Source of the DNA: a virus
Strand: one strand, 5' to 3'
IMG/VR virus record: IMGVR_UViG_3300017741_000060
Span: 1 to 22,492 of that record
DNA: 22,492 nt
The notes below the pieces were generated by a model. That model ran no database searches, had not been told where the DNA came from, and worked only from the letters and a program-made list of their open reading frames with translations. The translations under genes and the position numbers were made by a program. This document shows positions 1-15,795 of this stretch, piece by piece; the first letter of the stretch is position 1, and each line of letters begins with the position of its first letter.

Positions 1-304
1 CTGCACCTTTGGTTGGAGTTTTCTTTTCGACAAGCTGTGCATCCAATGCTGCATGAATTTCAGCAACCTTGTCCGCTCCACCAATAGCAGCTTGCGCCCA
101 AGTGATTGCTTGCGCTTCTGTCACGTCGTCATAAGCAACCATGTCGCTGGAGTCTGCAGCTTCAAGACCAACAGAGCCATAAGCGCCAGCGCTATACGTT
201 CCATCCTCATCAGTGGCATTCACTGTGTAGTGGAGCGTGTTAATCATGCCATCAGACAGAGTGCGATCACATTGACCGACTTTCCAAACGTAGGTGTTTG
301 CCAT
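1..304 (-). CDS. Hypothetical phage protein downstream of tail fibre, partial (C-terminus off window)
   Basis: An open frame starts at an ATG (304-302) and runs without a stop to the left edge, giving at least 101 residues that begin MANTYVWKVGQCDRTLSDG. The protein is small and acidic to neutral. A conserved-looking N-terminal half (TYVWKV, then a stretch rich in Gly, Tyr and Ser) is followed by a segment with AQAITWAQAAIGG and EIHAALDAQL that could form helices. I recall similar short proteins next to tail-fibre genes in marine phages (a family I know as DUF7936; the name is from memory). The function is unknown; the position suggests a structural or fibre-associated role. It sits 34 bases beyond a terminator-like hairpin, so it may have its own transcript. 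No strong Shine-Dalgarno precedes the ATG. Confidence 0.72.
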   Translation of the reverse strand, partial: MANTYVWKVGQCDRTLSDGMINTLHYTVNATDEDGTYSAGAYGSVGLEAADSSDMVAYDDVTEAQAITWAQAAIGGADKVAEIHAALDAQLVEKKTPTKGA

Positions 305-367: not shown

Positions 368-3300
368 TCAACCAGCTTCAAGAGCTGCGACTTTGGTTTC
401 TAGGGTTTCAATACGACCGATAGCTTCTTGTAAAGCAGCAGTTAATAGAGGCACCAGCTTAGCTTGATCGATTCCTTGATATACAGGATTACCGTCATCA
501 TCAACTTCATTGTGAGTTCCTGTTACTGCTTCAGGAACAACCAGTTGCGCTTCATGGGCAAGGAAACCATCAACGGTTGTTTCACTATCAGTGATAAAGT
601 TAAAACGATACACTGGTAATGTTTTTAAACGAGGGATTGCAGCAGATAAATTAACAACGTTTTCTTTTAAACGATAGTCGGAACTAGTATTAACGGAAAT
701 AGAACTGCCGCTACAAGTAATACTGCCAACAACGCCATTGGAGCTAGCAAAACGCATAAGATGACCGCTAGAACCAGTAATTTTTACAGCAAGAGCATAC
801 TCTCCGGAATGATCACCCATAACTTGCAATGCTTCGGCATAAGATTCGCTATTAGTATCATTAATAATGACACGACCTGATGCTGAAATTCTCATCCGCT
901 CAACTGGACTATCTGTTTGATCAGGTGTTGTACTAAATACAAGTCGTCCAGGTGTATCACTGCCGCCAGGAAGGGCATCAATGAAGCATTCAATTTTTGC
1001 AGCCTGCGAAACAAAATCGGTACCATCACCTGCACACCAGAATATGCCGCCTACTGAATCATCCGTAGCTACATTGTGCGGAATTGTACCCCTTGATTTT
1101 GCAATCTGAATGCCAGCGCCTTCGGCATTATTGCCGCGATTAATAACTGAAATTCGTGAGGTTGCAGTAGTTGCACCTTCAACTTGCAATGCACAATCGA
1201 GACCGTTAATAGGAATAGTCGAAGAATTCCCCACCAACAGCCTGCCCGAGCTGTCGATTCGCATTCGCTCGGTGTCATTCGTTCCAAACAACAATGCGTG
1301 ATTGGAAGCAGTTTTTAAAATTGCACCATCAGAATGTGTACGATAAACACCAATGTGAGAACTTGAATCTGTAACCTTTAGTCCGTATCCAGTTGCTCCG
1401 TTTAGGTGGAGGGTATCGCTTGGCGACGTTGTACCAATCCCAACATTTCCCGAGCTGTCTTGGAATAAACCATTGTTAAGCGATGGGTTGCCGGTTAAAA
1501 CTTTAAACGTTTGAGCAATAATATCTACAGGAGCCCTAGCAGATGTGTTGCGGTTATATGAACTAACCTCATTAGTTCCAGAAGTATGTCCAAGTTCAAG
1601 ACCTTCAGCGCCGCCATTTGAAACTACAAATTTAGTAGCAGGCGACGACGTTCCAATCCCAATATTGCCCGAGCTGTCGATTCGCATCCGCTCGCTGGAA
1701 ACACCAAAAGCAAGCGCATTATCTGAATGGTTGTAAAGAATATATCCAGCAGTATTTGCAGCAGCGTCAGCAAATCTAATTTGGCTAGAAGTTGATGCGC
1801 CAATCGTTATACCTTGCTCTCCTACACTTGTACTGCCAACAACCAGATTATCAGCACCACCATCGGCGTAGTTAGTCGTAGTTCCAAGCAACACATTGCC
1901 CGAGCTGTCGACAACAATGCGTGACGTTCCAGCAGTTGCAATACCAAACTGATTAGACCCTGGCGAATAAATACCAGTATCCGTATCAGTTCCTGAATAC
2001 AAACTAACCGCAGCAGCAGAGCCAGCTGGATACGCCAACTTGCCATTAGCACTCAACAATCCAGTAACAGCAACCGTTGAATCAAACGTTGCCCCACTCG
2101 TTACATCTAGCGTTCCAGGAACATCAACGTTGCTCGTAAATTCAACGCCTGATCCACCGGCATCAGTCTGCAGCAGTTGACGCGCAGTGCCGTTTGCAAG
2201 CTTGCTAACTGCAATCTCTGCACTAGCGTTGATATCACCATTGTTAATAGTTCCGTCTAAAATCATCGTGCTAGTGACACTGCCGGTATCACCAGTTGTT
2301 ACGACCGTTCCAGTAACGTTTGGCAGCGTAATGGTGCGGTCAGCTGTTGGATTAGTGACCGTTAAAGTTGTCTCATAATCATCAGCTGATGAACCTTCAA
2401 ACACCACATTGGTGCTAGTTCCAAGGTTCAAGTCACCAGTCATTGTGCCGCCAGCTTTTGGCAGCTTTTCAGTGTCAAGCTCTTGAATACCAGCCTGCAC
2501 ATCAGTGGCAACAATGTTGCCAGTAGCAATTAACGAAATATTGCTAGCTGTTTGACCAGCAATAGCGTTAGAAACGTCGATTAATGAATACTCAGTTCCG
2601 ACACCCTGTGACAGCAACATGTCAGGTGGTGCAAGTGCAACAGCAGGTGCCGCTCCAGATCCTGTGCCGCTTGTATCCACAACCACGTAGTGGTTTAAAT
2701 TAGTTACCGCTGGAGCTGGTAGAGCGCTTCCAACAGAAAAGCCAGCAGCGGAACCAGCAGACGTTACACTGCTCATTTGGTTCGTATTAGCGTTATACGC
2801 GCCAGCATTAACCAGATTTCCTGATAACACCGTTATGGGCACAAATGCAGACCCGGTATATATATACAGATCTTGAGTGGTCTCGTCGTAGAAAAACTGT
2901 CCCTTAAAGTCTCCAGCGGGGAAAATGGTTACGTTGTCACTACTTGCAGCACCGCCAAATTTAGTTGTCGCTTCATTTGCTAACTTTGCTGCCGTAATTG
3001 AATCATTGGCAATCAAAGAAGAGCCAATTGTTCCAGAAGTTAGCTTTGCAGCAGAATGATCAGGAATGTCCGCTGCAACTAAAACATCACCTGCAGAAAC
3101 AACACCTTTAGAAGTAACTGTAACTTTGGTGTATGTTCCAGCAGTTACCGTGTTATCTATTGACAGATTACCGCTTGCATCAACAACAAGACCATCACTA
3201 GCAACAACAGCACCTCTGGCAGAACTTGTCGCAACAGGAAGATCTGATGACGAAATTACACTGCCGCCAGTAATCAAACCATTGGCATCGTAAGTAACAA

Positions 3301-4006
3301 GATGTTTAGTGCTGCTAGCAGTGACACTATTAGCAATCTGGATCGTGTCGGTACTTAAAGAAAGCCCACCGCCATTAACGATGACGCCACCTTTTGCCGA
3401 AGTAGTTGCAGTCGGTAAATCACCGCCATCAATCGTGCGATAACCAACCGTTCCACCAGATCCCACAGGTCCAGCAAGAAACTGTGCTGCAGAAGCAGTG
3501 TTATCAATTGAAGCTGTGACTGTTGCCGTTCCACTGCTTACAGCTGTGGTGATATTAATAATGCCTGCTGTAGTGTCAGTAAAAGCATTGACGGAAGCAG
3601 GTGCTTTAGTATTCAACCATGTAGTACCGCTCCAAACATATAGAGAATTATCGTCGGTATCTAGAGCTAGCTGTCCTATAAAGCCACCAGAAGTGGGTAG
3701 CGTAGATGCAAGAGCTACAATTACATTATCTGCAATCTTTGTTGAAGTGATCGCATCAGCAGCGATCTTGACTGTTGTTACGCCTGAATCAGCTAATGCT
3801 GCTGTGGCAATACTGCCAGAATCGAATAAAATCTTTGCGCCAGGGATCGTATTGTCGTTGATCAGCGTGACGCCATTGGCAATCAAATCGCCAACCGTAA
3901 GCTTTGAAGTCTGTGAAGCCGATGAATCAACAACAGCCAACTGGTCAGCTGACGCCAAGTCAGAACCGCTTAGCGCAGGCAGTTGGCTAATTTTTAGATC
4001 AGACAT
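368..4006 (-). CDS. Tail fibre / tail spike with C-terminal Peptidase_S74 chaperone
   Basis: This 1212-aa protein is the likely receptor-binding fibre. The N-terminus (MSDLKISQLPALSGSDL and a following SKLTVGDLIA-type segment) resembles tail-attachment modules of marine phage fibres. The middle is low-complexity and rich in Ser, Thr, Ala and Gly. Between about residues 740 and 1070 it carries repeats of the type RMRIDSSGNIGIGTSSP, usual for beta-structured trimeric shafts. Residues about 1108-1212 form an intramolecular chaperone: SSDYRLKEN at its start carries the Ser and Lys expected for self-cleavage, and it ends in a coiled coil (IGRIETLETKVAALEAG). From family knowledge, the chaperone trimerises the fibre and then cuts itself off. 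A GGAGG lies 11 bases before the ATG. The gene follows the tube-like proteins and is the last one before a terminator. Confidence 0.93.
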   Translation of the reverse strand: MSDLKISQLPALSGSDLASADQLAVVDSSASQTSKLTVGDLIANGVTLINDNTIPGAKILFDSGSIATAALADSGVTTVKIAADAITSTKIADNVIVALASTLPTSGGFIGQLALDTDDNSLYVWSGTTWLNTKAPASVNAFTDTTAGIINITTAVSSGTATVTASIDNTASAAQFLAGPVGSGGTVGYRTIDGGDLPTATTSAKGGVIVNGGGLSLSTDTIQIANSVTASSTKHLVTYDANGLITGGSVISSSDLPVATSSARGAVVASDGLVVDASGNLSIDNTVTAGTYTKVTVTSKGVVSAGDVLVAADIPDHSAAKLTSGTIGSSLIANDSITAAKLANEATTKFGGAASSDNVTIFPAGDFKGQFFYDETTQDLYIYTGSAFVPITVLSGNLVNAGAYNANTNQMSSVTSAGSAAGFSVGSALPAPAVTNLNHYVVVDTSGTGSGAAPAVALAPPDMLLSQGVGTEYSLIDVSNAIAGQTASNISLIATGNIVATDVQAGIQELDTEKLPKAGGTMTGDLNLGTSTNVVFEGSSADDYETTLTVTNPTADRTITLPNVTGTVVTTGDTGSVTSTMILDGTINNGDINASAEIAVSKLANGTARQLLQTDAGGSGVEFTSNVDVPGTLDVTSGATFDSTVAVTGLLSANGKLAYPAGSAAAVSLYSGTDTDTGIYSPGSNQFGIATAGTSRIVVDSSGNVLLGTTTNYADGGADNLVVGSTSVGEQGITIGASTSSQIRFADAAANTAGYILYNHSDNALAFGVSSERMRIDSSGNIGIGTSSPATKFVVSNGGAEGLELGHTSGTNEVSSYNRNTSARAPVDIIAQTFKVLTGNPSLNNGLFQDSSGNVGIGTTSPSDTLHLNGATGYGLKVTDSSSHIGVYRTHSDGAILKTASNHALLFGTNDTERMRIDSSGRLLVGNSSTIPINGLDCALQVEGATTATSRISVINRGNNAEGAGIQIAKSRGTIPHNVATDDSVGGIFWCAGDGTDFVSQAAKIECFIDALPGGSDTPGRLVFSTTPDQTDSPVERMRISASGRVIINDTNSESYAEALQVMGDHSGEYALAVKITGSSGHLMRFASSNGVVGSITCSGSSISVNTSSDYRLKENVVNLSAAIPRLKTLPVYRFNFITDSETTVDGFLAHEAQLVVPEAVTGTHNEVDDDGNPVYQGIDQAKLVPLLTAALQEAIGRIETLETKVAALEAG
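1243..1911. repeat. Imperfect direct repeats inside the tail-fibre gene
   Basis: The 28-base unit at 1243-1270 recurs at 1666-1693 with a single difference (plus-strand core CCCGAGCTGTCGATTCGCAT). Shorter copies of its core are at 1447-1459 and 1896-1911. A longer imperfect copy (1423-1459 against 1641-1678) shares the motif CCAATCCCAA upstream of the core. The repeats encode the DSSGN and RMRIDSSG shaft motifs, so they reflect protein repeats, but the near-identity of the DNA is high enough to allow recombination between units. Confidence 0.75.
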
Positions 4007-4025: not shown

Positions 4026-4901
4026 CTACAGTCCAGAACTTTCAGTCAATAGCTTAGCTGAGCTGTCCTGATCCAAAAGTATCTCATCACTATCTTCCTG
4101 TAAAACCTTGGGTGGATCGGTTTCCAGCTGTACTTTCAGCTCAATTGGACCTGTAGTGACGAAATCCGCTGTAATCTCGACAGCTTGATCAGCAACGAAC
4201 TGAATCGCGCAAGACGTTAGAACACCTTCAACCTCATGCCAAATCGAGTCGTTGGCTGCAAAAGGGTTATTGCCGGCAGTTTGACCAGCTGTTTTGATGT
4301 AAAACTGCCCGATGAACCGACTGCCAACCTTGGTACGCAACAGCAACTGCAGCAAATACTGAGGCAGTTCTTTCTCGGTATCGCCTGTGTACTCCCAAAA
4401 ACACGTAACTTGCCCAGACCCAGACATCAAGCTGCTTATCTGCGAACGAAAACTATCGGACAAAGAAGTTGTATCTACTGTTTCGCGTTGAGTATTTAGC
4501 TCATAACTTCTTACCTGCGATAAAATTCTAAATTCCGCAGACTGTATAATTATTTTAATCTGTATTGACGCACCAGGGGTTGCAAGTGTTGTGGCATTTG
4601 CTGTTTTACCGTTTACTGCGTCAGCAAAAGAGTCATAAAGACGTATTCCGTTTAAATCGTCAACGTTGATAAATTTTCGTACCGCTCTTGCTGAGTAACC
4701 ACTGATAAAAGACAGTGCTGCATTGGCTTTATTGCTAATTCTGATTTCATCGCCTGTCAACAGTTGACCTGGCTCAAAATCAAAACTGAAACGCTTTCTG
4801 TCTGTATTTACGTCACTAGGAACCACCGTTCCATCAATCTGGGAATCGTTGAACTGGCGCTTTAGCTCAACATTGCCAAAAGTTCCGAGGTAGATGCTCA
4901 T
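4026..4901 (-). CDS. Virion protein with tail-tube-like domain and acidic C-terminal tail
   Basis: This 291-aa protein looks related to the major tail tube protein encoded at 15055-15795. Residues 129-146 (QVRSYELNTQRETVDTTS) match tube residues 116-133 (NVRSWSFEVNREEIDTTS) at many positions. Residues about 223-250 (EVEGVLTSCAIQF onward) match the tube segment QLEAVLTSASFSV in place and character. The N-terminal 120 residues also share a pattern with the tube protein's N-terminal insertion. The last 30 residues form an acidic, leucine-rich tail (EDSDEILLDQDSSAKLL). Its place between the tail tip and the fibre suggests a baseplate ring or fibre-attachment protein; this is inference. Its start overlaps the previous gene by TGATG, implying coupled translation. 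Confidence 0.82.
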   Translation of the reverse strand: MSIYLGTFGNVELKRQFNDSQIDGTVVPSDVNTDRKRFSFDFEPGQLLTGDEIRISNKANAALSFISGYSARAVRKFINVDDLNGIRLYDSFADAVNGKTANATTLATPGASIQIKIIIQSAEFRILSQVRSYELNTQRETVDTTSLSDSFRSQISSLMSGSGQVTCFWEYTGDTEKELPQYLLQLLLRTKVGSRFIGQFYIKTAGQTAGNNPFAANDSIWHEVEGVLTSCAIQFVADQAVEITADFVTTGPIELKVQLETDPPKVLQEDSDEILLDQDSSAKLLTESSGL

Positions 4902-5410
4902 CAGATGTTAACCGCAACTGGAGCGCCTTGGCATTGGAATTGAATATCTGCTGCCACAATATCGCCAACGGACATTGATAGAGATATGTTAGTAATAAAA
5001 ACTCTCATATCAATAAATTTGCCAGAAGTTGTTCCATCATCTATGTTTAAACGTAATCTAAAATTTTTCAAGCCTAAGTCGGCTTCATTTTGATCCAATG
5101 AAGCACCATTATCAAAACCTGAACCAGCACTACGTGGCTTAAAAACTTTATTCAAAAAAGTGCTTGCGCTGTTACTAGCATTGCTTGTCCCTAGGACTTC
5201 TTGATAATACAAAATACGACAACTGCCTGTCGTTGATCTTCCTATAGGAACAAAAGTATCGTCTGTATCGCCTAAGGTTTTATTGCTAATTAAAGAGACT
5301 GAAGAACTTACGCTCCAATTCTGGACCTTTGCAATCTCAGTGCCAGGATCGCTGTTATTAGCCGTGTCATTCAAAAACAGCTTGCCAGTAGCGCCAGTGA
5401 AAACAGCCAT
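4901..5410 (-). CDS. Small tail-tube-like virion protein
   Basis: This 169-aa protein has a layout seen in phage tube proteins. An N-terminal strand (GATGKLFLND) is followed at about residues 29-70 by VQNWSVSSSVSLISNKTLG and then GSCRILYYQ. The C-terminal half ends with FITNISLSMSVGDIVAADIQ, which resembles the closing strands of the major tube protein (LTSASFSVTPDDAQTVSVSF). The similarity is weaker than for the neighbouring 291-aa protein and was judged by eye. Both its ends overlap neighbours by TGATG, so it is translated as part of a tight set of virion genes. A minor tail or baseplate role is likely. No enzymatic motif is visible. Confidence 0.8.
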   Translation of the reverse strand: MAVFTGATGKLFLNDTANNSDPGTEIAKVQNWSVSSSVSLISNKTLGDTDDTFVPIGRSTTGSCRILYYQEVLGTSNASNSASTFLNKVFKPRSAGSGFDNGASLDQNEADLGLKNFRLRLNIDDGTTSGKFIDMRVFITNISLSMSVGDIVAADIQFQCQGAPVAVNI

Positions 5411-5850
5411 CAGAGCACGCCAATCAGATTCACTGTAACAGTGCTACGGCCCAAAGCTACCTGTGCCACCTGTGGTGGTCCTTCATAGCGATAGTTGTTG
5501 CCCTGGGTTTGAGCGCCTAAAGCGTCTTTGTCGCCCTCCCATCCGCCGCGAGTTGGATTTATCTTTGTCCCATCTACGTTGCCAACAGCAAAAGTCTGGA
5601 ACGTGCCTTGAACCGTGTCGTAATGATCTAAAAACAACTCGGCGTCGGCGTCTAAAATATTTGCATAGGTAAGCGACAGCTTCATATTGGTGCGTTTATC
5701 GCCATACAAAATCCTGTGCTCAGCGCCGTTTTGAGCCTTGTAAGTCTTGACTGGATAATCACCTGACTCAAAAGTGCGAGCGCTTGGCACCAAATAGTCC
5801 CCCAGCGCAAATGGTGCTGTGCGTCCTGCCTTAGTGATCGGGAAAGTCAT
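5410..5850 (-). CDS. Minor tail / tail-tip associated protein
   Basis: This 146-aa protein begins MTFPITKAGRTAPFALGDYL and is predicted to be mostly beta-structured. Its centre (ILYGDKRTNMKLSLTYANI followed by LFLDHYDTVQGTF) has the feel of lambda gpM/distal-tail-like proteins, in which a field of residues around DADAELFLDHY binds the tail tip. This assignment is by pattern and position only. It begins in an ATGA overlap with the large tip protein and ends in a TGATG overlap with the next gene, so it is made in step with them. Function in the tail tip is inferred; I cannot name the family securely. Confidence 0.78.
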   Translation of the reverse strand: MTFPITKAGRTAPFALGDYLVPSARTFESGDYPVKTYKAQNGAEHRILYGDKRTNMKLSLTYANILDADAELFLDHYDTVQGTFQTFAVGNVDGTKINPTRGGWEGDKDALGAQTQGNNYRYEGPPQVAQVALGRSTVTVNLIGVL

Positions 5851-8800
5851 GACTGAACGCTCCAGCCATCTGATCTTACAACCGCTAAGGCGATTTTGCT
5901 CTGCTGCTTACTGTCGCAAGGGTACTCAGAAGCAACAATATCAACAATGCCGTCTTGGGAGAAGGTCAACTGCTCAACAACATAGATATTTTGAGATACT
6001 TCGCTAGCTGTCACAGTGAATAAAATGTTGTAGTATTTAGAATCGTTGACTTTGCCCCCTGAAACCATTAACTTGCCTGTTTCAATTTCTTCGTCTGCCG
6101 ATCTAAAATAAGTAATATCATAGCCTTCTAAATTGTCTGGCATATCTCGCACGCTTGTAATTACGCCAGTAGCATCAACCGTTCCAGTGTTTGCAGAGTT
6201 ATAAGGAGTTGCTTCTGTCGTTACTTTGATAAAAGATCCAGCGCCAATGTTTAAACCTTCTGCTGTCGTAGAAAAGTTTATTGTATGAGTCACATACGCC
6301 CTTAGGGCCAAGAAATACTTTGCTACTAAAGTCGCGTGACTTTTTGATGTGCAAAATTGCGTCAAATCAAATTCTTCTTGAGGTAACAAGCTGGTGCCAG
6401 GAGAAGAATAAATGCCGCTGTCGTCAATTCCTTTCACTTCAATAACTGCCTCTTCTGGCAATTGATTGGCGCGTTCTTGTCTATACCGAACAACAGCTTT
6501 GAATGCTCGACGCTCTTCCGCTCCAAGGTATTCAATCTTGTAGCTGCCTTCGAGAATGTTTCCAGCCGTAAAGAATGCTTCTGGATTAATACGATCTATA
6601 CTTATGGTCCCATCGCTATTGACCGGGAAAGCAGGTTTTAATGAAAACTTGCCATTGACGATTGAAAAATTACATAAGAAATTCGGCGCAATGTCACTGA
6701 AGAATTGCCTTAAATTGGTGCGCTCAACGATTGGACCATTGAAGAACAAATTGTTTTTTACAAGAAATTTAGAAGTCAGCACCAAATCGCTTCTTTCGAC
6801 CATGTAACTTCTGTTGCCGTCCATTCCCAACAAACCACCCGCTCCAGCGGTTTGGTCTGTAAACATGAAATACATCAAATCTGTCAACAGATTGCTAGGA
6901 CCATGCGTTGCAGTATCACCGTAAAAAGAACTGGAAAGACCAACTGTTGGATGCAACCGCTCCACTGCTATTCCGTTCTTTAGCCACACCCTCATTTGAT
7001 CAAGAGCAGTAAAATTACGTCCTGCTTTAAGTGAAAAACCAGCAAGAGTTAAGTTAAGCATATTGGTAACACTATCGTTTATTTGCACTTCGTTTATGTA
7101 CACAATTTCGTGTTCAGGCGATGAATTGTTTGATTTTTCAACAAAATTGCGATAGGCACTGATGTCTGAGACTTGTGATTGCGATGCAAAATCAAGCTCT
7201 GAACTACTTACAGGGTCGGTAGTTTGTTCTAATTTTACGCTGCTAATTCTGTAGTTTTGTCCAACAGAGCTGTATAAAGTGCGGAATGGATTGTTGCTGC
7301 TTACAACGCGAAAGTCTGAAAATATTTCGTCAACCTCCCACTTAGCTATTGTTGTGTCTGTTCCTTCGTAAATTCGAGTTACTTCGCCATTTGTCCAGCC
7401 TTGGCTTTGACCAACAATTGGAGCTTTGAAATTTACAACCGTAGCTGTTAAATCAACAGTAATTTTTTTCAGCCCTTTAGTAAAAACAAATGCTGGGACA
7501 GTTTTTTTATCGGTAGCCTTAAGGTTGCCTATCGCTCCAAAAACTTCGTAGCGCCATGCTTGTGATCTAGCAACTAGCTCCACGTCTTCAGTGATCCTAT
7601 TCACTTCAAACCTCATGCCTGAAAACGTCATCGTTCCATCAGGGTTATTATTTACAAACGGGTTTGTATTTGGGTAGCTTGACTGACCACTTGCAACATC
7701 AGTGCCCTCAGATCCTCTCTTTATCTCAATCTCTTCTTTGGCTGAAAACCCTCCGCCACTGCCCAAGACAGTAACAGTTGATTCGCCGCTAAATGCCCAG
7801 CGATGAGTTTCGTTGGAATAAGATGCAGTAGTATTTTTCTTTTTTTGAATCTTCCACTGCAAGTGTAGCCATTTTTCTTGCTTGCCGTCTATATACTCGA
7901 ATGTTTCAATATCAATGTATTGATTATTTCTTACGTCAGGGCTATCCGCACTTCCGGCAATTGCATAAAAGAAAGCAGACACCTTTCCTGTGTTAATACC
8001 TACATTCGCAATGTTTCTGTTTGAAGGAGGTCTGTCTAAATTTTGACCGATCTCTGCAATGTTTCCTGTTACTACGGCAGGAGAAGGAGAATGAAAAGCA
8101 GCTGCGTCTGGATAAGTAGGCTCCTCGACAGCAGAAATTGTTTTAGGAGCTTTTTTAAATTCATTGTTGCCTTTAAGTCCTGTTTTATCATTAAATTTTC
8201 TGCCAGAAGTTTGTATTTCTAGTACAAGTCCATTGCTTAAATCTACGGGGTCTACCTGAACCTTGTTTGATTCTGACTTGTCAGCAGTGCTTGTTGATTG
8301 ATCTAGAACGACAAACGTAAATGATCTGTCCGTATCTCCAATAGCTCTAAACTCAGAGCAAGTGAAAGGAACAAATTTGAATTCAAGTTGACGCTGTAAT
8401 TGTTCAGGGCGCTTCTCTTCGTCTTGGTTGATAAATTTGATGTAATTATATTGGGCGCTTGGGCTCTGGCCTTGGATTACAAAGATCTGAGGGAACGCTG
8501 CAAAAGTTGATCCATTGTCCCTAGCATCTCTGACATAAATCCTAAACATCGAAGAACGACGGATTGTTGAGTTTATCGTTCCATTGTTTATTTGTATGTT
8601 TAGTTCTTCAGAGTTTTCTACTTCTTTAGGGGAGGGCAGGTTTTGAAAATTGCACAACCCGTTTAAACGCTGAAATACAGTGCTCTTAAGCCCAATCTCA
8701 GTGATAAATGCTGGCCTGTTGTTTTTGATAGTCGCAATCGCAACTTGCGTTAAAGGGAAAAATCCTTCGCCAACGTTAATTGATTGATCGCCAACACCGC

Positions 8801-10358
8801 TGTCTCCTATAAATGCGTTGCCATCGCCCTGCGGCTCAACGACTAAATCTTTGCTGACAATGCCAATTTTTTTGAACATTGAAGTTGATGTGTCTACACA
8901 TTCCATTGTTATTCTTTGGTCGTTTTCGCCTCCTCCTGAAGGCTCAAAATTTCGCAGCTTTCTCTTTGTTACCTTCCAAATACTTCCACCAATCATAAAA
9001 TGCTCACCAAGCTGCATTGCCCCGTCAGCCTCTTGCTGCAGTGAGCTGACAGTTGAATTTATGTCATCAACAGACGCTCCACCTTCTTCCCTTTGGTAAA
9101 AGTCTTCCTGTATTTTTGAGTTTTTTATTGAAAACACAATTGTGTCACCTTCTGCTACGTCTGTAATTACGGTCTTAAACGTCTTGTCAATAAATAATTT
9201 GTTGTCGGTATCGATGTTTTTCCTGTCGTTGTACTCAATAATTCCCATGCGGGGACTGTAGTTTCTTCCAGTGCCATCATGAAACTGTTCGATGATTGGC
9301 TCACGTTCTTTTTTCTCTGCACTTTTTGGAATGATCTTTCGATCTCTAAAAGACTGGCCATCATCAACCGCTCCAGATTCCCCCATCACTTTCATGCGCT
9401 GCAAAACAAGAACTTTTCTTTGATCTTGAGTGCTGTCTATTGCGATAAGATTTAATTGATAATTGACCCTAAAGTTTGTCCCGTTTGCAATTGGGCTGTG
9501 GCAGCCGAATGCTGCGGAATTTGCAGGTGTATAGGCATGACAGAAAAGTTGATTAGCCTCAAGCTCTCCTGCATCTTCGACCTCAAAAACATCGTCATCG
9601 TCCCCTTTGCCTACTCCTGGATCTCCAGAGTCAAGTGGCCCTCTTGTTCCATATTGCTTGTCACTTCCTCGAATACGAAAGTTGCCTGAAAAAGATGCCT
9701 TGTGCCAGTAAAAAGCAAAATTATCCTCAAAAATTGCATCTAGCGCATTGTTTCCCAGAAAAATTCCCTCAAGCTCTGGTTTGTCAATCCCAATATTATT
9801 TACGCCTTGCTCGCCAACAACAAACATAAGCTTGGCTCTTTGCGACGTTCCATGGCTAAACATCCGCGACCAAATCAGCTTTGGCGTAACCAGCATTCCG
9901 CCAATATTGTTTTTATACATCCCAAAAATTATGGGAACAGGCGAGGCATAATCTGCTAACTCTGCAAGCGTTTCAAAGCCGCGTGAAGGCGTAAAGCGAT
10001 TGGCCCCTGTAATGCTGCCAAGATCAGTAACACCACCGCCTTGAGCGCGTGGCATCTTTGGCTTTGGTGTCAGCAAATATGAAACACCAGTCAGCACAAG
10101 GCTGATTGCCAGGTTGATTAAAATTGCTGGCCCTGCAGCTCCTGCTTGAACGTCAGGGATATGGTCATACGCCGCTGGTCTTACCGCTCCACGCCTTCTT
10201 ACCTCAGCTGTAAATGCTCGATACTCTTCCTCAGTTATTCCAATCGTTGCAATTAGCTGCCTTTCATACGGAAGCAATGGTACGTCGTAAATGCTCGAAC
10301 CAATGACCACTGCACTTTCTGCGTCATCGGACCGATATACAGAATTCCCTTTTGCCAT
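5847..10358 (-). CDS. Large tail-tip / host-specificity protein (lambda I+J-like)
   Basis: This 1503-aa protein (from ATG 10358) is the central tail-tip protein. Near the N-terminus, around residues 75-105, a hydrophobic segment (ILINLAISLVLTGVSYLL) followed by TPKPK is typical of lambda gpI-like tail assembly proteins. The segment ending PVPIIFGMYKNNIGGMLV then leads into the long J-like part. The C-terminal hub contains FDLTQFCTSKSHATLVAKYF and then GAGSFIKVTTE (around residues 1325-1385), motifs I associate with J-type hub domains. The N-terminus overlaps the NlpC-like gene by about 106 bases. A TTG at 10376, a GTG at 10310 and a TTG at 10277 are alternative starts; the last would nearly remove the overlap. 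It ends in ATGA with the next gene. Confidence 0.9.
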   Translation of the reverse strand: MAKGNSVYRSDDAESAVVIGSSIYDVPLLPYERQLIATIGITEEEYRAFTAEVRRRGAVRPAAYDHIPDVQAGAAGPAILINLAISLVLTGVSYLLTPKPKMPRAQGGGVTDLGSITGANRFTPSRGFETLAELADYASPVPIIFGMYKNNIGGMLVTPKLIWSRMFSHGTSQRAKLMFVVGEQGVNNIGIDKPELEGIFLGNNALDAIFEDNFAFYWHKASFSGNFRIRGSDKQYGTRGPLDSGDPGVGKGDDDDVFEVEDAGELEANQLFCHAYTPANSAAFGCHSPIANGTNFRVNYQLNLIAIDSTQDQRKVLVLQRMKVMGESGAVDDGQSFRDRKIIPKSAEKKEREPIIEQFHDGTGRNYSPRMGIIEYNDRKNIDTDNKLFIDKTFKTVITDVAEGDTIVFSIKNSKIQEDFYQREEGGASVDDINSTVSSLQQEADGAMQLGEHFMIGGSIWKVTKRKLRNFEPSGGGENDQRITMECVDTSTSMFKKIGIVSKDLVVEPQGDGNAFIGDSGVGDQSINVGEGFFPLTQVAIATIKNNRPAFITEIGLKSTVFQRLNGLCNFQNLPSPKEVENSEELNIQINNGTINSTIRRSSMFRIYVRDARDNGSTFAAFPQIFVIQGQSPSAQYNYIKFINQDEEKRPEQLQRQLEFKFVPFTCSEFRAIGDTDRSFTFVVLDQSTSTADKSESNKVQVDPVDLSNGLVLEIQTSGRKFNDKTGLKGNNEFKKAPKTISAVEEPTYPDAAAFHSPSPAVVTGNIAEIGQNLDRPPSNRNIANVGINTGKVSAFFYAIAGSADSPDVRNNQYIDIETFEYIDGKQEKWLHLQWKIQKKKNTTASYSNETHRWAFSGESTVTVLGSGGGFSAKEEIEIKRGSEGTDVASGQSSYPNTNPFVNNNPDGTMTFSGMRFEVNRITEDVELVARSQAWRYEVFGAIGNLKATDKKTVPAFVFTKGLKKITVDLTATVVNFKAPIVGQSQGWTNGEVTRIYEGTDTTIAKWEVDEIFSDFRVVSSNNPFRTLYSSVGQNYRISSVKLEQTTDPVSSSELDFASQSQVSDISAYRNFVEKSNNSSPEHEIVYINEVQINDSVTNMLNLTLAGFSLKAGRNFTALDQMRVWLKNGIAVERLHPTVGLSSSFYGDTATHGPSNLLTDLMYFMFTDQTAGAGGLLGMDGNRSYMVERSDLVLTSKFLVKNNLFFNGPIVERTNLRQFFSDIAPNFLCNFSIVNGKFSLKPAFPVNSDGTISIDRINPEAFFTAGNILEGSYKIEYLGAEERRAFKAVVRYRQERANQLPEEAVIEVKGIDDSGIYSSPGTSLLPQEEFDLTQFCTSKSHATLVAKYFLALRAYVTHTINFSTTAEGLNIGAGSFIKVTTEATPYNSANTGTVDATGVITSVRDMPDNLEGYDITYFRSADEEIETGKLMVSGGKVNDSKYYNILFTVTASEVSQNIYVVEQLTFSQDGIVDIVASEYPCDSKQQSKIALAVVRSDGWSVQS

Positions 10359-10621
10359 GTGACTGCAAATGCCCAAGATTGCTGCGGTAACAGCAGAATG
10401 TCCCCATCATACGCAGGCTTTTCAACTCGCAAACCCCACCGCATCAGATCCCGGCATACATCCCACTTACTCGCTTGATACCAGCTCTGCTTGAACGGTG
10501 GCTTGTCAATGCCCATCCGCTCCAATGCCCGATAGCACAGATGGATGCAGTCAATATGGCCGTCACTACCGTCAGCACCAAGCCGATACGGCATTCCAAT
10601 TAGATCACTGCAGTCGGACAT
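10253..10621 (-). CDS. NlpC/P60-like tail-tip protein, possibly catalytically incomplete
   Basis: In this position lambda-like phages encode gpK, an NlpC/P60 peptidase that trims cell-wall peptides during DNA entry. The 122-aa product has LIGMPYRLGADGSDG followed by DCIHLCYRAL, which places the expected nucleophile at Cys25, and the usual GDILLLP turn at about residues 75-81. The family's second catalytic residue, a His in a HVGIYLG-type strand, is not apparent: the matching stretch reads WAFAVTWQKGILYIG. The only histidines are 22, 27 and 115. ATG 10621 was preferred over an upstream TTG at 10648 because it overlaps the previous gene by only 17 bases. The last 35 codons overlap the start of the tip gene in another frame. 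Confidence 0.85.
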   Translation of the reverse strand: MSDCSDLIGMPYRLGADGSDGHIDCIHLCYRALERMGIDKPPFKQSWYQASKWDVCRDLMRWGLRVEKPAYDGDILLLPQQSWAFAVTWQKGILYIGPMTQKVQWSLVRAFTTYHCFRMKGS

Positions 10622-11108
10622 TATTTGCAATTGGCAAGTTGCCAACAAGTTTCTTGGTTAAAGCACGCCTTGGAATGTCCGTTCCAACAGCATCTAACAC
10701 TGAGCTAAGTTGTAAATTCAACGATACGTTGTCCCAAGTTCCACCAGTAATTTGCCCGGTGTAACTATGTACGCTTTGATGCGTGCCGCCAGACGGATTG
10801 GATGAATCTACAATTAAAACTTCGACCTCAACAACATAATGATCTCTAATTGCTAGGACTGCCCATCCGCGAGATAAATCATTATTTGGGAAAACAAGAC
10901 TAGCTTCCATACCATCTCCCGTACGGTTTACGGTTACACCAGAGAACCCAAACGGCACAAAACCATACGAGTTGCTCTCGTATGTCATGTCTTGATTAAT
11001 AAAAAAGTTCTGAAAGCGGAACTGAACAAACAGCCCTTCAGTGTTGCTATTTGTTGACTCCCGCAAGGCATTGATCGTTACGAGCTGACCTAAAGCGTAC
11101 TGGCTCAT
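10605..11108 (-). CDS. Minor tail protein (lambda gpL-like position)
   Basis: This 167-aa protein begins MSQYALGQLVTINALRESTN and is rich in beta-type sequence. The C-terminal segment VGTDIPRRALTKKLVGNLP and the central GMEASLVFPNNDLSRGWAV resemble proteins encoded between the tape measure and the NlpC-like gene in many siphoviruses, where lambda has gpL (DUF2163/DUF1833-like families). Family membership is not certain. It probably bridges the tail tip and the end of the tape measure. The start overlaps the tape-measure stop by ATGA, and its end overlaps the NlpC-like gene by 17 bases. Confidence 0.8.
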   Translation of the reverse strand: MSQYALGQLVTINALRESTNSNTEGLFVQFRFQNFFINQDMTYESNSYGFVPFGFSGVTVNRTGDGMEASLVFPNNDLSRGWAVLAIRDHYVVEVEVLIVDSSNPSGGTHQSVHSYTGQITGGTWDNVSLNLQLSSVLDAVGTDIPRRALTKKLVGNLPIANNVRLQ

Positions 11109-14100
11109 ATTCCAATCCTCTTACGTGTACTGCCACTCATTTGTAAACGCTTCAGGGTTTGCTGTTCACCCTGTTTAGCACCCTGCTGTGCAGCTTGCTG
11201 CATTCCAGCCTGGAACTGATCAGCAGTCACGTAGTCAACGCTATTGATCCGCTCCACTGTGTAGCGAACATCGATTGGAGCGGCAACAGCAGTTCCGCCT
11301 CCTTCTCCTATGGCTTCAGCTGCACCAGATTCTGGAATGACAGAGTTACCACGGCTGCCGCGTGAATAACGCGACATTGCGGTACGCATTTTAGATTCTG
11401 GAATGACATATTCAGGCTCGCCACCTTCACCAATTAAAGCGTTAGTTGGTCGTGAAACATATCCACCTTCTGCAAATAATGACTTAGTAAGAACAGGGGA
11501 GGTATTAACATACTGTTGAATACCATCGAGATTTAAAGGGCTAGGACCAGCACTAGCGGTAGATCCAATGATGCTGCCAATAAATTGAATAGCCTGCGCC
11601 TTAATCGCAGCAGCAATAATCTGAGCTGTCATATCCAAGAAATGATCCGCTGTCTTTTGAAATAAATTTGCTAGTGCTTGTTGAGCACTCATGCTGCCGC
11701 TAATAACACCTTTGAATGATTCGCTAAAAGCATCTCCTATCGCTCCAGCTGCGGCTACAACTTGATTTACTGGATCAATTAATTTATTTAGCTCGCCCTG
11801 TGCATCGCCAATTGCGTCCTCGATTCTTTCCTTGTCTGACTTGCCTTTTCCAGGGCCCTCAGCCGCTTTACCTTCAATCAAACCCCTTTCTTCTTTTAAG
11901 TCATCTATTCGCTGCCTAAGAGCCTTGGCTTGTTCGCTATCTATATCAAGCGAAAGCAATTTTGCTTCTGCTATTTTAATTAACTCATTTTTTTGTAATA
12001 TCAACGCAGCAACTTGTTTGTTATATTCAACGATTCTCTTTGCTTCAGCGGGAAGAACTCCTTCCATGATTAGGCGATTGTATTCCTTTGATGCCGCAAG
12101 GTTTGCTTCTTGACTGTCTCGAATTTGTTTTAGTGGAGCGACTGCATCTCTAAGAGCTTTTGCACGTTTTTGCTCTTGATCAAATGCGAGTTTTGCTTCA
12201 GCGTTTGTTTTAATTTGAGCGGCTAATTTTCTTTGTTCGGATGCCTCACTTTGGTCTTTTAGCTTTGCAATTCTTTCCAGAGTCTGTTCGTATCTTCCTT
12301 CTATTGCAAGCTTTTGGGCTTCCACAGTGCCTGCTACTTTGCTTTGCGCTAACTGCCGATCCAGGGTTGCAGTAAGCGAGCTGGCTTGCTGTTTTTGCTG
12401 CAAAAGTTGCTTGTTTTGTCGGCTAGTATTTTTAACACCACTGGCTATTTTTTTGTTTTGACGTTCAAATGCCTCTTCGACATCTCTAGCAAGTTGATTT
12501 TGTTTTGTTATTGACTCCTCTATGATTTGCCCTTCTTTTATACGAAGCTGTCCTCGATCTTTTATAGTGCCGTTTTCATCGCGGCCTACGGTCTCTATAG
12601 CTTTTTCAATGGCAATATCTCTTTCTCTGATAATAGCTGCTCGCTTTAAATTGACAAAACTTTTATTCGTATAATCTGTTTTTTGTCTAGCCAATTTTGT
12701 ATTTATTTCATTTAATTTAGCGTCTTTTATCCCAAGAGCGCTTGAAACTTTTTTGAGCCTTAGTTCTTTTGCAGCAGCTTGAACTTGAGCCTCAGCTTCA
12801 GCCGTAACGCCTCTAGCCAATTCTCTAAGTTGATCTTCAATGCTAACTAACTCTGTGTATTGTGCTGGACTTAAACTATCTAAACTTGACGCTCCAGGTC
12901 CTAAAGCTCCTGATCCGTCGCCAAGTAATTCTGCTCTTCTTGTTTGCAACTCCTTAGCTTCTGGAGTATCTAAATTCATTCCTGCCGACAAATCATTGAT
13001 ATTTTTTAATGCGTCTACCGTAAAATCAACAAGGCCACTAAATAACTTTGAAGCCGCAGACTGCATAAGGGCCAAAGACCTAGACACTTGAACGCTTAAA
13101 TCAGCAGTACCATCACCAAAATCTCTTAGGGATTGAACGCCTTCATTACCTACAGTTGCCGCTAACAATGCAGTTGCGGCTTCAAGAGCTTGTTGCTCAC
13201 TACCTAGTTCCTGAATTGTCTTTAAAGCTTTTCCAGTCTCCGTGCCTGCGAAACCTGCTGCTTCAGCTAGTGCATCAATGTCAGCGGTAAGAGGATTAAG
13301 TGCCTGCCCAAGTGTTGCGCCACCACTAACAATTTGATCAGCAAACGCACCAATTTGCGTGCCGACAAGCGACAACGCAAATCCCATTTGACCGCCTGCT
13401 AAACCGCCAGCAAAGCCACCTATACCTCCACCAATAGCCGCTCCACCTCCTTGCCCAAACAGCAGTGGGAACGCACCACCAATAAGCCCGCTGCTGATTG
13501 CATTATCCCTGCGAGCTTTTCTATCAGCCCTTTGTGTTGCTATATCTTGCCTTTGTTTTGCTATATTTTGCTCTAATTTTTTAGCTGCCGTTAAGCCTGC
13601 TTTACGCTTAGCTTCTATGCGTTTTTCGCTGTCTTCGCGTATTTTTAAATATAATTTTTCGGCATCTGTGTTTAGTCGTATCCTACGAGTTAATTCTTGA
13701 TCGAACTTTGCCCCTTCTGCATTATCAGCCTTTATAGCCGCGCTAAGTTTCGTTCCAATAGCGTCGATCTCTGCGTCAAGTCGCTTTTGAATTCCTCTGA
13801 TTTTGTCGTTATTTAATTCAATAAAAGCGCGACGATCGGCTTGATTTACTTTGTTTGTAAGTTCTATTTTTTGTTGTGCAAGCCTTTGGGTTGCCTTGCC
13901 TTCGGCAATAGCTTCTGACGCCAAACCAGCAGCTCTAGTCCTAGCCGCTCCAGCTATTGGATCAAACCCTGGAGCGGGTTCTGGACCAAACTTAGGCTGA
14001 CCGCGAAGATACGAACCAGTCATCGTGGTTTGTGAACCACGCTGCGTAGCGGACGCAAGTTCAGCGTTATACGCTTTTAACGCTTGAGTTGCTGCGCCAC

Positions 14101-14419
14101 GATCCTGTATTTCTTGCCTGACTAATTTATTATTTAAATCTTGAGCGTCGTTAGAAGCGATTAACGCTGTGACAAAACTATCTAAGTTTCTTTTGTATAA
14201 ACCAGTCGCCTTGCCAGCCTTATCAGTCTCTATTTGAGTTTGGTTTAAATTTTCATTTGCTTTCCTTAAAGCTTCATTGTAAGAGCTTAAGTTTGCTACA
14301 GTAAATTCTTTCTTGTTTACCCTATCTACTTCATTGGCAAGACGCTCAAGCTGAGACTGAAACCTGTCAAGCTGCTTTACGCCCTTTACGCCGATCTCAA
14401 TCTCAGCTCTATAGGCCAC
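11105..14419 (-). CDS. Tail tape measure protein
   Basis: At 1104 aa this is the tape measure, whose length sets tail length and which is ejected with the DNA. It begins at GTG (14419), with GGAA a few bases upstream, and reads MAYRAEIEIGVKGVKQLDRF. Long Lys-, Glu-, Ala- and Gln-rich helical stretches (about 160-300 and 560-860) predict coiled coils. A glycine-rich hydrophobic region (about 305-365, with AIGGGIGGFAGGLAGGQMGF) is the usual membrane-active segment. Near residues 981-1013 it carries AEGGYVSRPTNALIGEGG followed by PEYVIPESKM, a conserved C-terminal motif of many phage tape measures. It follows the frameshifted chaperones, as in lambda. If the usual scaling of about 1.5 angstroms per residue holds, the tail would be roughly 150-170 nm. 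Confidence 0.95.
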   Translation of the reverse strand: MAYRAEIEIGVKGVKQLDRFQSQLERLANEVDRVNKKEFTVANLSSYNEALRKANENLNQTQIETDKAGKATGLYKRNLDSFVTALIASNDAQDLNNKLVRQEIQDRGAATQALKAYNAELASATQRGSQTTMTGSYLRGQPKFGPEPAPGFDPIAGAARTRAAGLASEAIAEGKATQRLAQQKIELTNKVNQADRRAFIELNNDKIRGIQKRLDAEIDAIGTKLSAAIKADNAEGAKFDQELTRRIRLNTDAEKLYLKIREDSEKRIEAKRKAGLTAAKKLEQNIAKQRQDIATQRADRKARRDNAISSGLIGGAFPLLFGQGGGAAIGGGIGGFAGGLAGGQMGFALSLVGTQIGAFADQIVSGGATLGQALNPLTADIDALAEAAGFAGTETGKALKTIQELGSEQQALEAATALLAATVGNEGVQSLRDFGDGTADLSVQVSRSLALMQSAASKLFSGLVDFTVDALKNINDLSAGMNLDTPEAKELQTRRAELLGDGSGALGPGASSLDSLSPAQYTELVSIEDQLRELARGVTAEAEAQVQAAAKELRLKKVSSALGIKDAKLNEINTKLARQKTDYTNKSFVNLKRAAIIRERDIAIEKAIETVGRDENGTIKDRGQLRIKEGQIIEESITKQNQLARDVEEAFERQNKKIASGVKNTSRQNKQLLQQKQQASSLTATLDRQLAQSKVAGTVEAQKLAIEGRYEQTLERIAKLKDQSEASEQRKLAAQIKTNAEAKLAFDQEQKRAKALRDAVAPLKQIRDSQEANLAASKEYNRLIMEGVLPAEAKRIVEYNKQVAALILQKNELIKIAEAKLLSLDIDSEQAKALRQRIDDLKEERGLIEGKAAEGPGKGKSDKERIEDAIGDAQGELNKLIDPVNQVVAAAGAIGDAFSESFKGVISGSMSAQQALANLFQKTADHFLDMTAQIIAAAIKAQAIQFIGSIIGSTASAGPSPLNLDGIQQYVNTSPVLTKSLFAEGGYVSRPTNALIGEGGEPEYVIPESKMRTAMSRYSRGSRGNSVIPESGAAEAIGEGGGTAVAAPIDVRYTVERINSVDYVTADQFQAGMQQAAQQGAKQGEQQTLKRLQMSGSTRKRIGI

Positions 14420-14449: not shown

Positions 14450-14973
14450 TTAACGCCTACGACGCGCCTTATCCATTTCCTTCTGCCGCTCCTCGTTGAT
14501 TACGCTGAAATACGCGTTCCAGCCAATCAATTCCTCTTGCGTCATTGTGGCGCGAACCTCTGACAAGCTCATGCCAAGCTCTTTAGCAATGCCAAATTGC
14601 AGCATGAGCCAGTTATCTTTCCGAAGCTCAGCGCTTAGGACTTTGGGTCGATAGCCTCTTGTTCGTCGTCAGTCAAAATTGCCAGCATTAAAGACTGCAA
14701 ATCCTTGTCCTTCACTTCGTTTTTAAGCACATCAATTTCACCAGGCAAAAACAAAGCACTGCCATTTTCATCTTTAGCTTTACCAATTAAAAGCTGCAGT
14801 GCAAACGCATTAGCATCCTCCGATCCAGCACGCTTTTGAGCGCGTTCACGCTCTGCCATCGTCAATGGCGTAACCCACATCTCAAATTCTGTGCCATCTG
14901 AAAGCTTGACTGTCTTCTTAGCTGCTTCAAGATTGGCTGCTTTCTTAAGGCGGTCAATGGCGCGAACTGCCAT
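14450..14973 (-). CDS. Tail assembly chaperone, -1 frameshifted long form (GT-like)
   Basis: This is the predicted fusion product. Frame 0 is read from ATG 14973 through codon 111 (Lys, AAG), then the ribosome slips back one base at CCCAAAG and continues to the TAA at 14452-14450. The extension adds 63 residues starting VLSAELRKDNWLMLQF and ending in KEMDKARRRR, giving 174 aa. The extension has no good independent start and is free of stops. It is conserved in character with lambda T-like domains: an aromatic helical segment and a charged tail. In lambda the long form binds the tape measure through the T part while G coats it. The gene lies directly before the tape measure, as expected. Confidence 0.85.
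14635..14973 (-). CDS. Tail assembly chaperone, short form (G-like)
   Basis: The unshifted product has 112 residues, from MAVRAIDRLKKAANLEAAKK to the terminal DPKS, and ends at TAA 14637-14635. It has a beta-type start (VKLSDGTEFEMWVTPLTMAE) followed by a helical, acidic C-terminus (LMLAILTDDEQEAIDPK). This matches the small tail assembly chaperones encoded between the tube and tape-measure genes. These proteins are needed in many copies during assembly and are absent from the mature tail. A strong terminator lies upstream, between the tube gene and this one, so it is probably expressed well below the tube protein. Confidence 0.88.
   Translation of the reverse strand: MAVRAIDRLKKAANLEAAKKTVKLSDGTEFEMWVTPLTMAERERAQKRAGSEDANAFALQLLIGKAKDENGSALFLPGEIDVLKNEVKDKDLQSLMLAILTDDEQEAIDPKS
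14641..14647 (-). promoter_or_regulatory. -1 ribosomal slippery heptamer CCCAAAG
   Basis: The minus strand reads C CCA AAG in the frame of the short chaperone, exactly the X XXY YYZ arrangement needed for tandem -1 slippage (compare GGGAAAG in lambda G/T). It lies two codons before the frame-0 stop. Past the site the -1 frame is open for 63 codons. The placement at the very end of the first reading frame and directly before a tape-measure gene strongly supports programmed frameshifting. Confidence 0.85.
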
Positions 14974-15054: not shown

Positions 15055-15795
15055 TCAACTTTTAGCAAAGTCGAAAGTAGGTGCAGTTGTGGGACGGAAA
15101 CTGACTGAAACAGTCTGCGCGTCATCTGGCGTAACCGAGAAACTTGCAGAGGTCAGTACAGCCTCAAGTTGAATGGAACGACTCTTTGTATCGTCAGGCG
15201 TGCCAGAAGACAACACCGTGTCCATATACAACTTAAATGTTGCACCAGCTTGCTGACGCTGCGTTACGTCCTCAATCAAACGAGCAGAGATGCCGGTGTC
15301 ATCATCTGTGAAATACACTTCCGCAGATCCAGTGCCGTCAGCAAAACCAGAGATGAACGTACGGAATGGAGCGGTTTGACCCAACGTTCCACCAATACTG
15401 GTGGTGTCAATCTCTTCGCGGTTTACCTCAAAGCTCCAAGAACGGACATTTGCGACTGACTGAAACTCAGTAAAGTTGATCGCAAAGTCGCTGGTGCCAT
15501 CAGTACCATCGCTACTTAATGAAAGCTCAGTACCGCCTGCAGTAGCAGCAAACGTAGCAACACCAGTTGCAGCCACGTAGGTTCTGATAAAGACAGGGGT
15601 GCCTTCAGTTAAACCACCAGGCAGAGTGCCGCCACCAGCAGTAAACGAAACTTTGTCGTCTACCTTGAAATTCAAGAAGGCACCAACACTAATGTTGTTG
15701 CTTCCGCTGGTGACATCAGCAGCTTTGAACTTGCCAGATGTACCGGCAGGCTTGTAATAGAGGGCTCCAGAGGTGCCCGAAAGGACGGTAGCCAT
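15055..15795 (-). CDS. Major tail tube protein
   Basis: This 246-aa protein starts MATVLSGTSGALYYKPAGTS, a typical tube-protein start. Residues about 28-110 look like an inserted or extra beta domain (SVGAFLNFKVDDKVSFTAGG and onward). Residues 116-160 (NVRSWSFEVNREEIDTTS then GSAEVYF) and 209-236 (QLEAVLTSASFSVTPDDA) form the core of the tube fold. Hundreds of copies stack as hexameric rings to make the tail. The gene lies between the tail terminator and the chaperones, and has a 75-base leader before it and a strong terminator after it, both in keeping with high expression. Two genes at 4026-5410 look like relatives. Confidence 0.92.
   Translation of the reverse strand: MATVLSGTSGALYYKPAGTSGKFKAADVTSGSNNISVGAFLNFKVDDKVSFTAGGGTLPGGLTEGTPVFIRTYVAATGVATFAATAGGTELSLSSDGTDGTSDFAINFTEFQSVANVRSWSFEVNREEIDTTSIGGTLGQTAPFRTFISGFADGTGSAEVYFTDDDTGISARLIEDVTQRQQAGATFKLYMDTVLSSGTPDDTKSRSIQLEAVLTSASFSVTPDDAQTVSVSFRPTTAPTFDFAKS

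What the first reader, a model, noticed from the sequence alone, without database searches (positions are those of the whole stretch)
4026..5410. Two extra tail-tube-like proteins placed after the tail tip
The 291-aa protein shares QVRSYELNTQRETVDTTS-like and EGVLTSCAIQF-like segments with the major tube protein (NVRSWSFEVNREEIDTTS and EAVLTSASFSV), in the same order and spacing. The 169-aa neighbour has a looser version (VQNWSVSSSVSL and FITNISLSMSV). Tube folds are known to be reused in baseplates, but three per genome with two beside the fibre suggests a tip or collar made from tube duplicates.
Basis: partly seen in the sequence, partly recalled or inferred. Interest (0 to 1): 0.6.

Follow-up and report, generated by a model that had tools for sequence, protein, structure and literature searches.

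The report
Extra tube-like proteins at tail tip
Besides the protein that builds its tail tube, this uncultured marine virus of bacteria carries two further proteins of the same fold, always encoded beside the tail-tip and fibre genes in related viruses, which suggests that the end of the tail is finished with remodelled tube rings; this is a new variation on a well-known theme.

Summary
The 291-aa protein (B291) is homologous to the major tail protein (MTP): BLASTP E 1e-7, profile-profile 97.8% (E 4e-12). The 169-aa protein (A169) is not detectable by a single pairwise comparison (E 0.21), but its family profile matches the MTP (94%, E 2e-8). Predicted models of both (moderate confidence) match mainly solved tail tubes. 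They belong to the tip module. In 117 of 117 sampled B291 loci A169 lies directly upstream; in long contigs the order is tape measure, gpL-like, K-like, J-like hub, gpM-like, A169, B291, fibre. Relatives with similar head, chaperone and tape-measure genes but a lambda-type tip have no tube-fold gene after the tape measure (0 of 14). A separate tube gene coexists with the pair where contigs reach far enough, sometimes moved ahead of the capsid gene, so the pair does not replace the tube. A169 and B291 are each monophyletic and old, not recent duplicates of this phage's MTP. Most likely they form specialised rings between tube, gpM-like ring and fibres, B291's inserted domain and C-terminal tail serving attachment; location and stoichiometry are inferred. 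No relative was found among 50,697 cultured phage records. New variant of a known kind.

The parts
4026..4901 (-). B291: tube-fold protein with an inserted domain (about residues 17-122) and a conserved C-terminal tail (about 259-291); proposed distal ring or collar that holds the fibre
   Evidence: BLASTP and profile homology to MTP; model matches tail tubes; A169 always directly upstream
4901..5410 (-). A169: minimal tube-fold protein; proposed distal adaptor ring
   Evidence: profile homology to MTP; model matches tail tubes; linkage
5410..5850 (-). 146-aa gpM-like (distal tail protein-like) protein
   Evidence: phrog_15525 minor tail protein E 6e-15; hhalign 94.5%, E 8e-8, to the gpM family (PF05939) of relatives with lambda-type tips
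5847..10376 (-). 1509-aa J-like tail hub / central fibre protein; possible gpI-like stretch near residues 83-153
   Evidence: phrog_27845 tail protein E 2.5e-33; phrog_32 weak, E 0.009
10253..10648 (-). NlpC/P60-like (gpK-like) protein
   Evidence: NLPC_P60 E 0.003, below the curated cut-off; phrog_329 E 1.6e-5
10605..11108 (-). 167-aa protein, possibly gpL-like without the C-terminal domain
   Evidence: phrog_25799; hhalign 44%, E 2e-4, to the gpL family
11105..14419 (-). tape measure protein
   Evidence: length and position; homologs in the same position in relatives
14635..14973 (-). tail assembly chaperone-like protein
   Evidence: phrog_20784 E 8e-37 (unknown function); phrog_344 tail assembly chaperone E 0.007; position
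15055..15795 (-). major tail (tube) protein, with its own inserted domain
   Evidence: phrog_1407 E 4e-8; 45% to KBS-S-2A homolog, and relatives annotated major tail protein in S-2L and MED4-117
368..4006 (-). 1212-aa tail fibre; C-terminal stretch resembles an S74-type intramolecular chaperone (read by eye)
   Evidence: sequence; follows B291 in the relatives

Best explanation
A169 and B291 are two structural proteins of the tail tip built on the tail-tube fold, old paralogs of the tube protein. Shown here: homology to the tube protein, a tube-like predicted fold, and strict co-inheritance with one type of tip module. [quoted passage not shown] A169, the bare tube fold, would act as an adaptor ring; B291, with an extra inserted domain that would point outward and a conserved C-terminal tail, would be the collar that holds the fibre encoded next to it. 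The J, gpM-like, A169 and B291 genes overlap by 1-4 bases, which fits coordinated production of tip parts.
For: Homology by BLASTP and profiles with negative controls. Models match tail tubes, with few unrelated folds. A169 directly upstream of B291 in 117 of 117 loci. 15 of 15 tips with this J carry gpM-like, A169 and B291; 14 of 14 loci without such a J have no tube-fold gene after the tape measure. Gene overlaps. Precedent: lambda gpM has the gpV topology and joins tube to hub (PMC10721106); T1 likewise (PMC11945409).
Against: No virion proteomics, structure or complex prediction. Model confidence is only moderate (pLDDT 65-66). Fibre holding rests on gene adjacency, an inserted domain of unassigned fold and a conserved tail. 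Linkage shows shared function or shared transfer, not physical place.
Confidence: 0.6

Rival explanations
1. A169 or B291 is a second tube subunit that polymerises along the tail with the MTP, or replaces it in some relatives.
For: Same fold; L049 and L040 have no MTP before the chaperone gene; SPP1 builds its tube from two MTP forms (PMC8718954).
Against: Relatives with the L049-type chaperone carry a separate tube gene of about 145 aa ahead of the capsid gene, and L191 holds that gene plus A169 and B291. The pair follows the tip type, not the tube type: it occurs with long, short and relocated tube genes.
Confidence: 0.15
2. They are assembly factors, for example an initiation platform on which the tube starts, not parts of the finished virion.
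For: In lambda an initiator complex precedes tube polymerisation (PMC8718954); lambda gpK was not found in virions by mass spectrometry (PMC10721106).
Against: Solved proteins of the tube fold are mostly ring-forming virion or injection-system parts.
Confidence: 0.1
3. They are peripheral fibre-collar or receptor-binding parts that reuse the tube fold without lining the DNA channel.
For: Genes lie between the gpM-like gene and the fibre; B291 has a less conserved inserted domain (47% vs 61% in the core), with a further insertion in some relatives.
Against: A169 has no extra domain beyond the tube core; no peripheral use of this fold was tested here.
Confidence: 0.15

Closest known systems
Lambda-type tail tip (gpV tube, gpM distal tail protein, gpL, gpI, gpJ; PMC10721106; T1 in PMC11945409)
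   Same: Tube fold reused in the tip (gpM, gpL N-terminal domain); window counterparts of gpM, probably gpL, K-like and J-like are present.
   Different: Two more tube-fold proteins, closer in sequence to the tube protein than to gpM; gpM-like gene after J; the gpL-like protein is short.
RcGTA / R4C-type tail (tube, Dit, hub, megatron, fibres; PMC10276861)
   Same: Marine siphophage-like tail; the R4C tube (8gtb) is the best VIA match of B291.
   Different: R4C tip has one Dit ring, hub, megatron and fibres and no second tube-like protein is described.
Contractile-system tube initiators (T4 gp48/gp54, PVC/AFP tube paralogs; own knowledge)
   Same: Several tube paralogs per machine, some serving as initiator or adaptor rings; T4, PVC and AFP baseplate chains appear among the matches.
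   Different: No sheath gene was seen here, and the gene neighbourhood is that of a siphophage.
SPP1 gp17.1 / gp17.1* (two MTP forms; PMC8718954)
   Same: More than one tube-fold polypeptide in one siphophage.
   Different: The SPP1 form is a C-terminally extended variant of the same MTP that builds the tube; here there are separate genes linked to the tip.

Membership tests
Tail tube protein superfamily | Sequence homology to a tail tube protein | tested here: met
   B291 BLASTP E 1e-7; A169 and B291 profiles vs MTP 94.4% and 97.8%, controls negative
Tail tube protein superfamily | Tube fold (beta-sandwich with flanking helix and long hairpin) | tested here: met
   A169 model: tail and injection-system chains at the top, VIA best Z 8.5; B291 best Z 8.4 to the R4C tube; both models of moderate confidence
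Tail tube protein superfamily | Forms hexameric rings stacked along the tape measure | not testable with these tools
   no complex prediction or experiment available
Distal tail protein (gpM / Dit) | Profile match of A169 or B291 to the gpM family | tested here: not met
   A169 0.7%, B291 0.2%; the neighbouring 146-aa protein matches instead (94.5%)
Tail tip component | Gene linkage with tip genes rather than with tube or head genes | tested here: met
   117 of 117 pairs; 15 of 15 against 0 of 14
Tail tip component | Presence at the tip of the virion | not testable with these tools
   no isolate, proteome or structure; no relative in cultured phage records by tblastn

The most novel reading that the evidence does not exclude
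A widespread marine siphophage group ends its tail in a segment of at least two different tube-paralog rings, an adaptor collar that comes and goes as one unit with the tip, so that one head and tube chassis can carry either this tip or a lambda-type tip.
Probability: 0.4. Interest if true: 0.55.

Novelty: new variant of a known kind. Interest (0 to 1): 0.42.

Why it matters
The siphophage tips described in the papers read here use a plan of tube, distal tail protein and hub with peripheral accessory proteins. A tip with two more tube-fold proteins, with more than 400 matching stretches in the viral collection but none found in cultured phage records, would show how tube paralogs become adaptors and how tips are exchanged. 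Two tip types on one chassis make the question testable by comparison.

Tried and rejected
Rejected: that A169 or B291 is the only tube protein in phages lacking an MTP before the chaperone gene (L049); in that class the tube gene is ahead of the capsid gene. Rejected: shared origin of the inserted domains of MTP and B291; no profile match, so the first hhalign over 227 columns owes its score mainly to the core. Rejected: recent duplication within this lineage. Led nowhere: cultured relatives of A169/B291 by tblastn; PDB sequence profiles (only xkdM at E 0.88); the P-SS2 siphovirus proteome, judged by its annotation to be a different tail type; BFVD search of the B291 model, mostly unnamed or low-score matches; [quoted passage not shown] The fold of B291's inserted domain stays unassigned; matches to astrovirus capsid and UBA7 chains are at a common-arrangement level.

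Full report
Setting. The window is a 22,492-base virus record. The main genes are on the minus strand in siphophage order: portal, scaffold and capsid candidates, terminator (phrog_179), major tail protein (MTP, 15055-15795), chaperone-like gene, tape measure, a 167-aa protein, an NlpC/P60-like protein, a 1509-aa J-like protein, a 146-aa minor tail protein, the two proteins of the finding (A169, 4901-5410; B291, 4026-4901), and a 1212-aa fibre.

Observation. The quoted segments exist with spacing 95 (MTP), 96 (B291) and 109 (A169) residues. MTP and B291 are homologous by plain BLASTP (E 1e-7, 28% over 137 aa), far above 2000 shuffles. MTP and A169 are not clearly related as single sequences (E 0.21; 5 of 2000 shuffles), but their family profiles are: 94.4%, E 1.8e-8. 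B291 and A169 cores match at 79%, E 1.5e-5; reversed profiles and unrelated neighbouring families give at most 2.1%. Single-sequence phmmer also links the window MTP with A169-family members of other contigs, best E about 1e-5. Independent libraries agree weakly: phrog_10528 'major tail protein' for both, and PF16460 lambda-like TTP for an A169 relative, below the curated cut-off.

Fold. Models built on alignments of 30 (A169) and 25 (B291) sequences have mean pLDDT 65 and 66. All 22 Foldseek matches of A169 at E 1e-3 or better are tail, tailocin or injection-system chains; VIA best Z 8.5. B291 matches are weak in Foldseek, but the VIA list is dominated by tail tubes and Hcp, best the R4C tube, Z 8.4. 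The B291 matches span both sides of its inserted domain (model range 6..259), as expected for a tube fold interrupted by an insertion.

Inserted domains. MTP and B291 both carry about 95-105 extra residues between the first strand region and the core. Their profiles do not match (2.7%), so they are unrelated or too diverged to tell. In B291 the insertion is less conserved (47%) than the core (61%); the C-terminal 33 residues average 44%, with a recognisable pattern (LQEDSDEILLDQD in the window) and two invariant positions in the family alignment, E269 and L276.

Linkage. In every contig of the first two searches that reaches far enough the order is J, gpM-like, A169, B291, fibre. In a larger sample, 117 of 117 B291 genes with 700 bases upstream have A169 immediately upstream (these are loci, and a few contigs appear twice). 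Among loci with the tape measure and enough downstream sequence, 15 of 15 with this J type have gpM-like, A169 and B291; 14 of 14 with no such J have no tube-fold gene after the tape measure (again loci, with at least two from one contig in the first group). One of the latter, L218, has PF05939 (gpM), PF05100 (gpL), a JAB/NlpC protein, a gpI-like and a gpJ-like gene in lambda order. The 146-aa protein of the window is the counterpart of that gpM (94.5%) and the 167-aa protein possibly of gpL (44%). So the two tips share counterparts, in different order, and differ by the presence of A169 and B291.

Is there always a separate tube gene? In L049 and L040 none lies before the chaperone gene. Relatives with the L049-type chaperone carry a tube gene of about 145 aa ahead of the capsid gene, and L191 contains that gene plus A169 and B291. 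Hence the pair does not stand in for the tube where this can be checked; in many contigs it cannot, because they are too short.

Age. In a maximum-likelihood tree of the tube core (142 columns), A169 and B291 form clades with support 98 and 100, separate from long MTPs (with KBS-S-2A) and short MTPs (with MED4-117 and S-H1). The order of the deeper splits is not firmly resolved (89).

Mechanism. Shown: homology, fold class, linkage, gene overlaps. From the literature: lambda gpM is topologically identical to the gpV tube domain and joins the six-fold tube to the three-fold hub, and gpL has a gpV-like domain (PMC10721106); T1 is similar (PMC11945409); mycobacteriophage baseplates have a 6:6:3 core of tube, distal and hub proteins with accessory proteins (PMC13252515). 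Inferred: A169 and B291 add one or two rings to this stack, and B291 presents its inserted domain and C-terminal tail for fibre attachment. I hold the tip assignment at about 0.85, ring formation at about 0.6 and fibre holding at about 0.35.

Distribution. More than 400 matching stretches in the viral collection, two in metagenome-assembled bacterial bins (probably viral contigs), none in cultured phage records by tblastn. The host is unknown; the cultured relatives of the tube protein infect marine Synechococcus and Prochlorococcus for the most part.

Novelty. Reuse of the tube fold in tips is established. What appears new is a siphophage tip module with two additional tube paralogs, in fixed order, on a chassis that elsewhere carries a lambda-type tip. 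I found no description of it in the library searched, which holds only open-licence papers.

Noticed in passing
L151, L171, L226, L158, L191, L218, L221 (ahead of the capsid gene): In a large class of related phages the tail tube gene (about 145 aa) has moved ahead of the major capsid gene, leaving terminator and chaperone genes adjacent.
   Followed up: partly
L142:32508-32945 and 32912-33370: Synechococcus phage S-H1 has two tandem tube-like genes between terminator and chaperone.
   Followed up: no
L218 compared with window 4026-11108: Two alternative tip modules (lambda-type M-L-K-I-J, and the type described here) occur on related head and tape-measure chassis.
   Followed up: partly
L029:1970-2989, L031:5910-6929: Some B291 relatives carry a further insertion of about 50 residues (AGTVYQI...DFT..GA pattern) inside the inserted domain.
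   Followed up: no
window 10605-11108: The gpL-like 167-aa protein lacks the C-terminal region that in lambda gpL binds an iron-sulfur cluster; it contains no cysteine.
   Followed up: no
L040: The J-like gene is split into two open frames (349 and 1213 codons): a frameshift or an assembly error.
   Followed up: no
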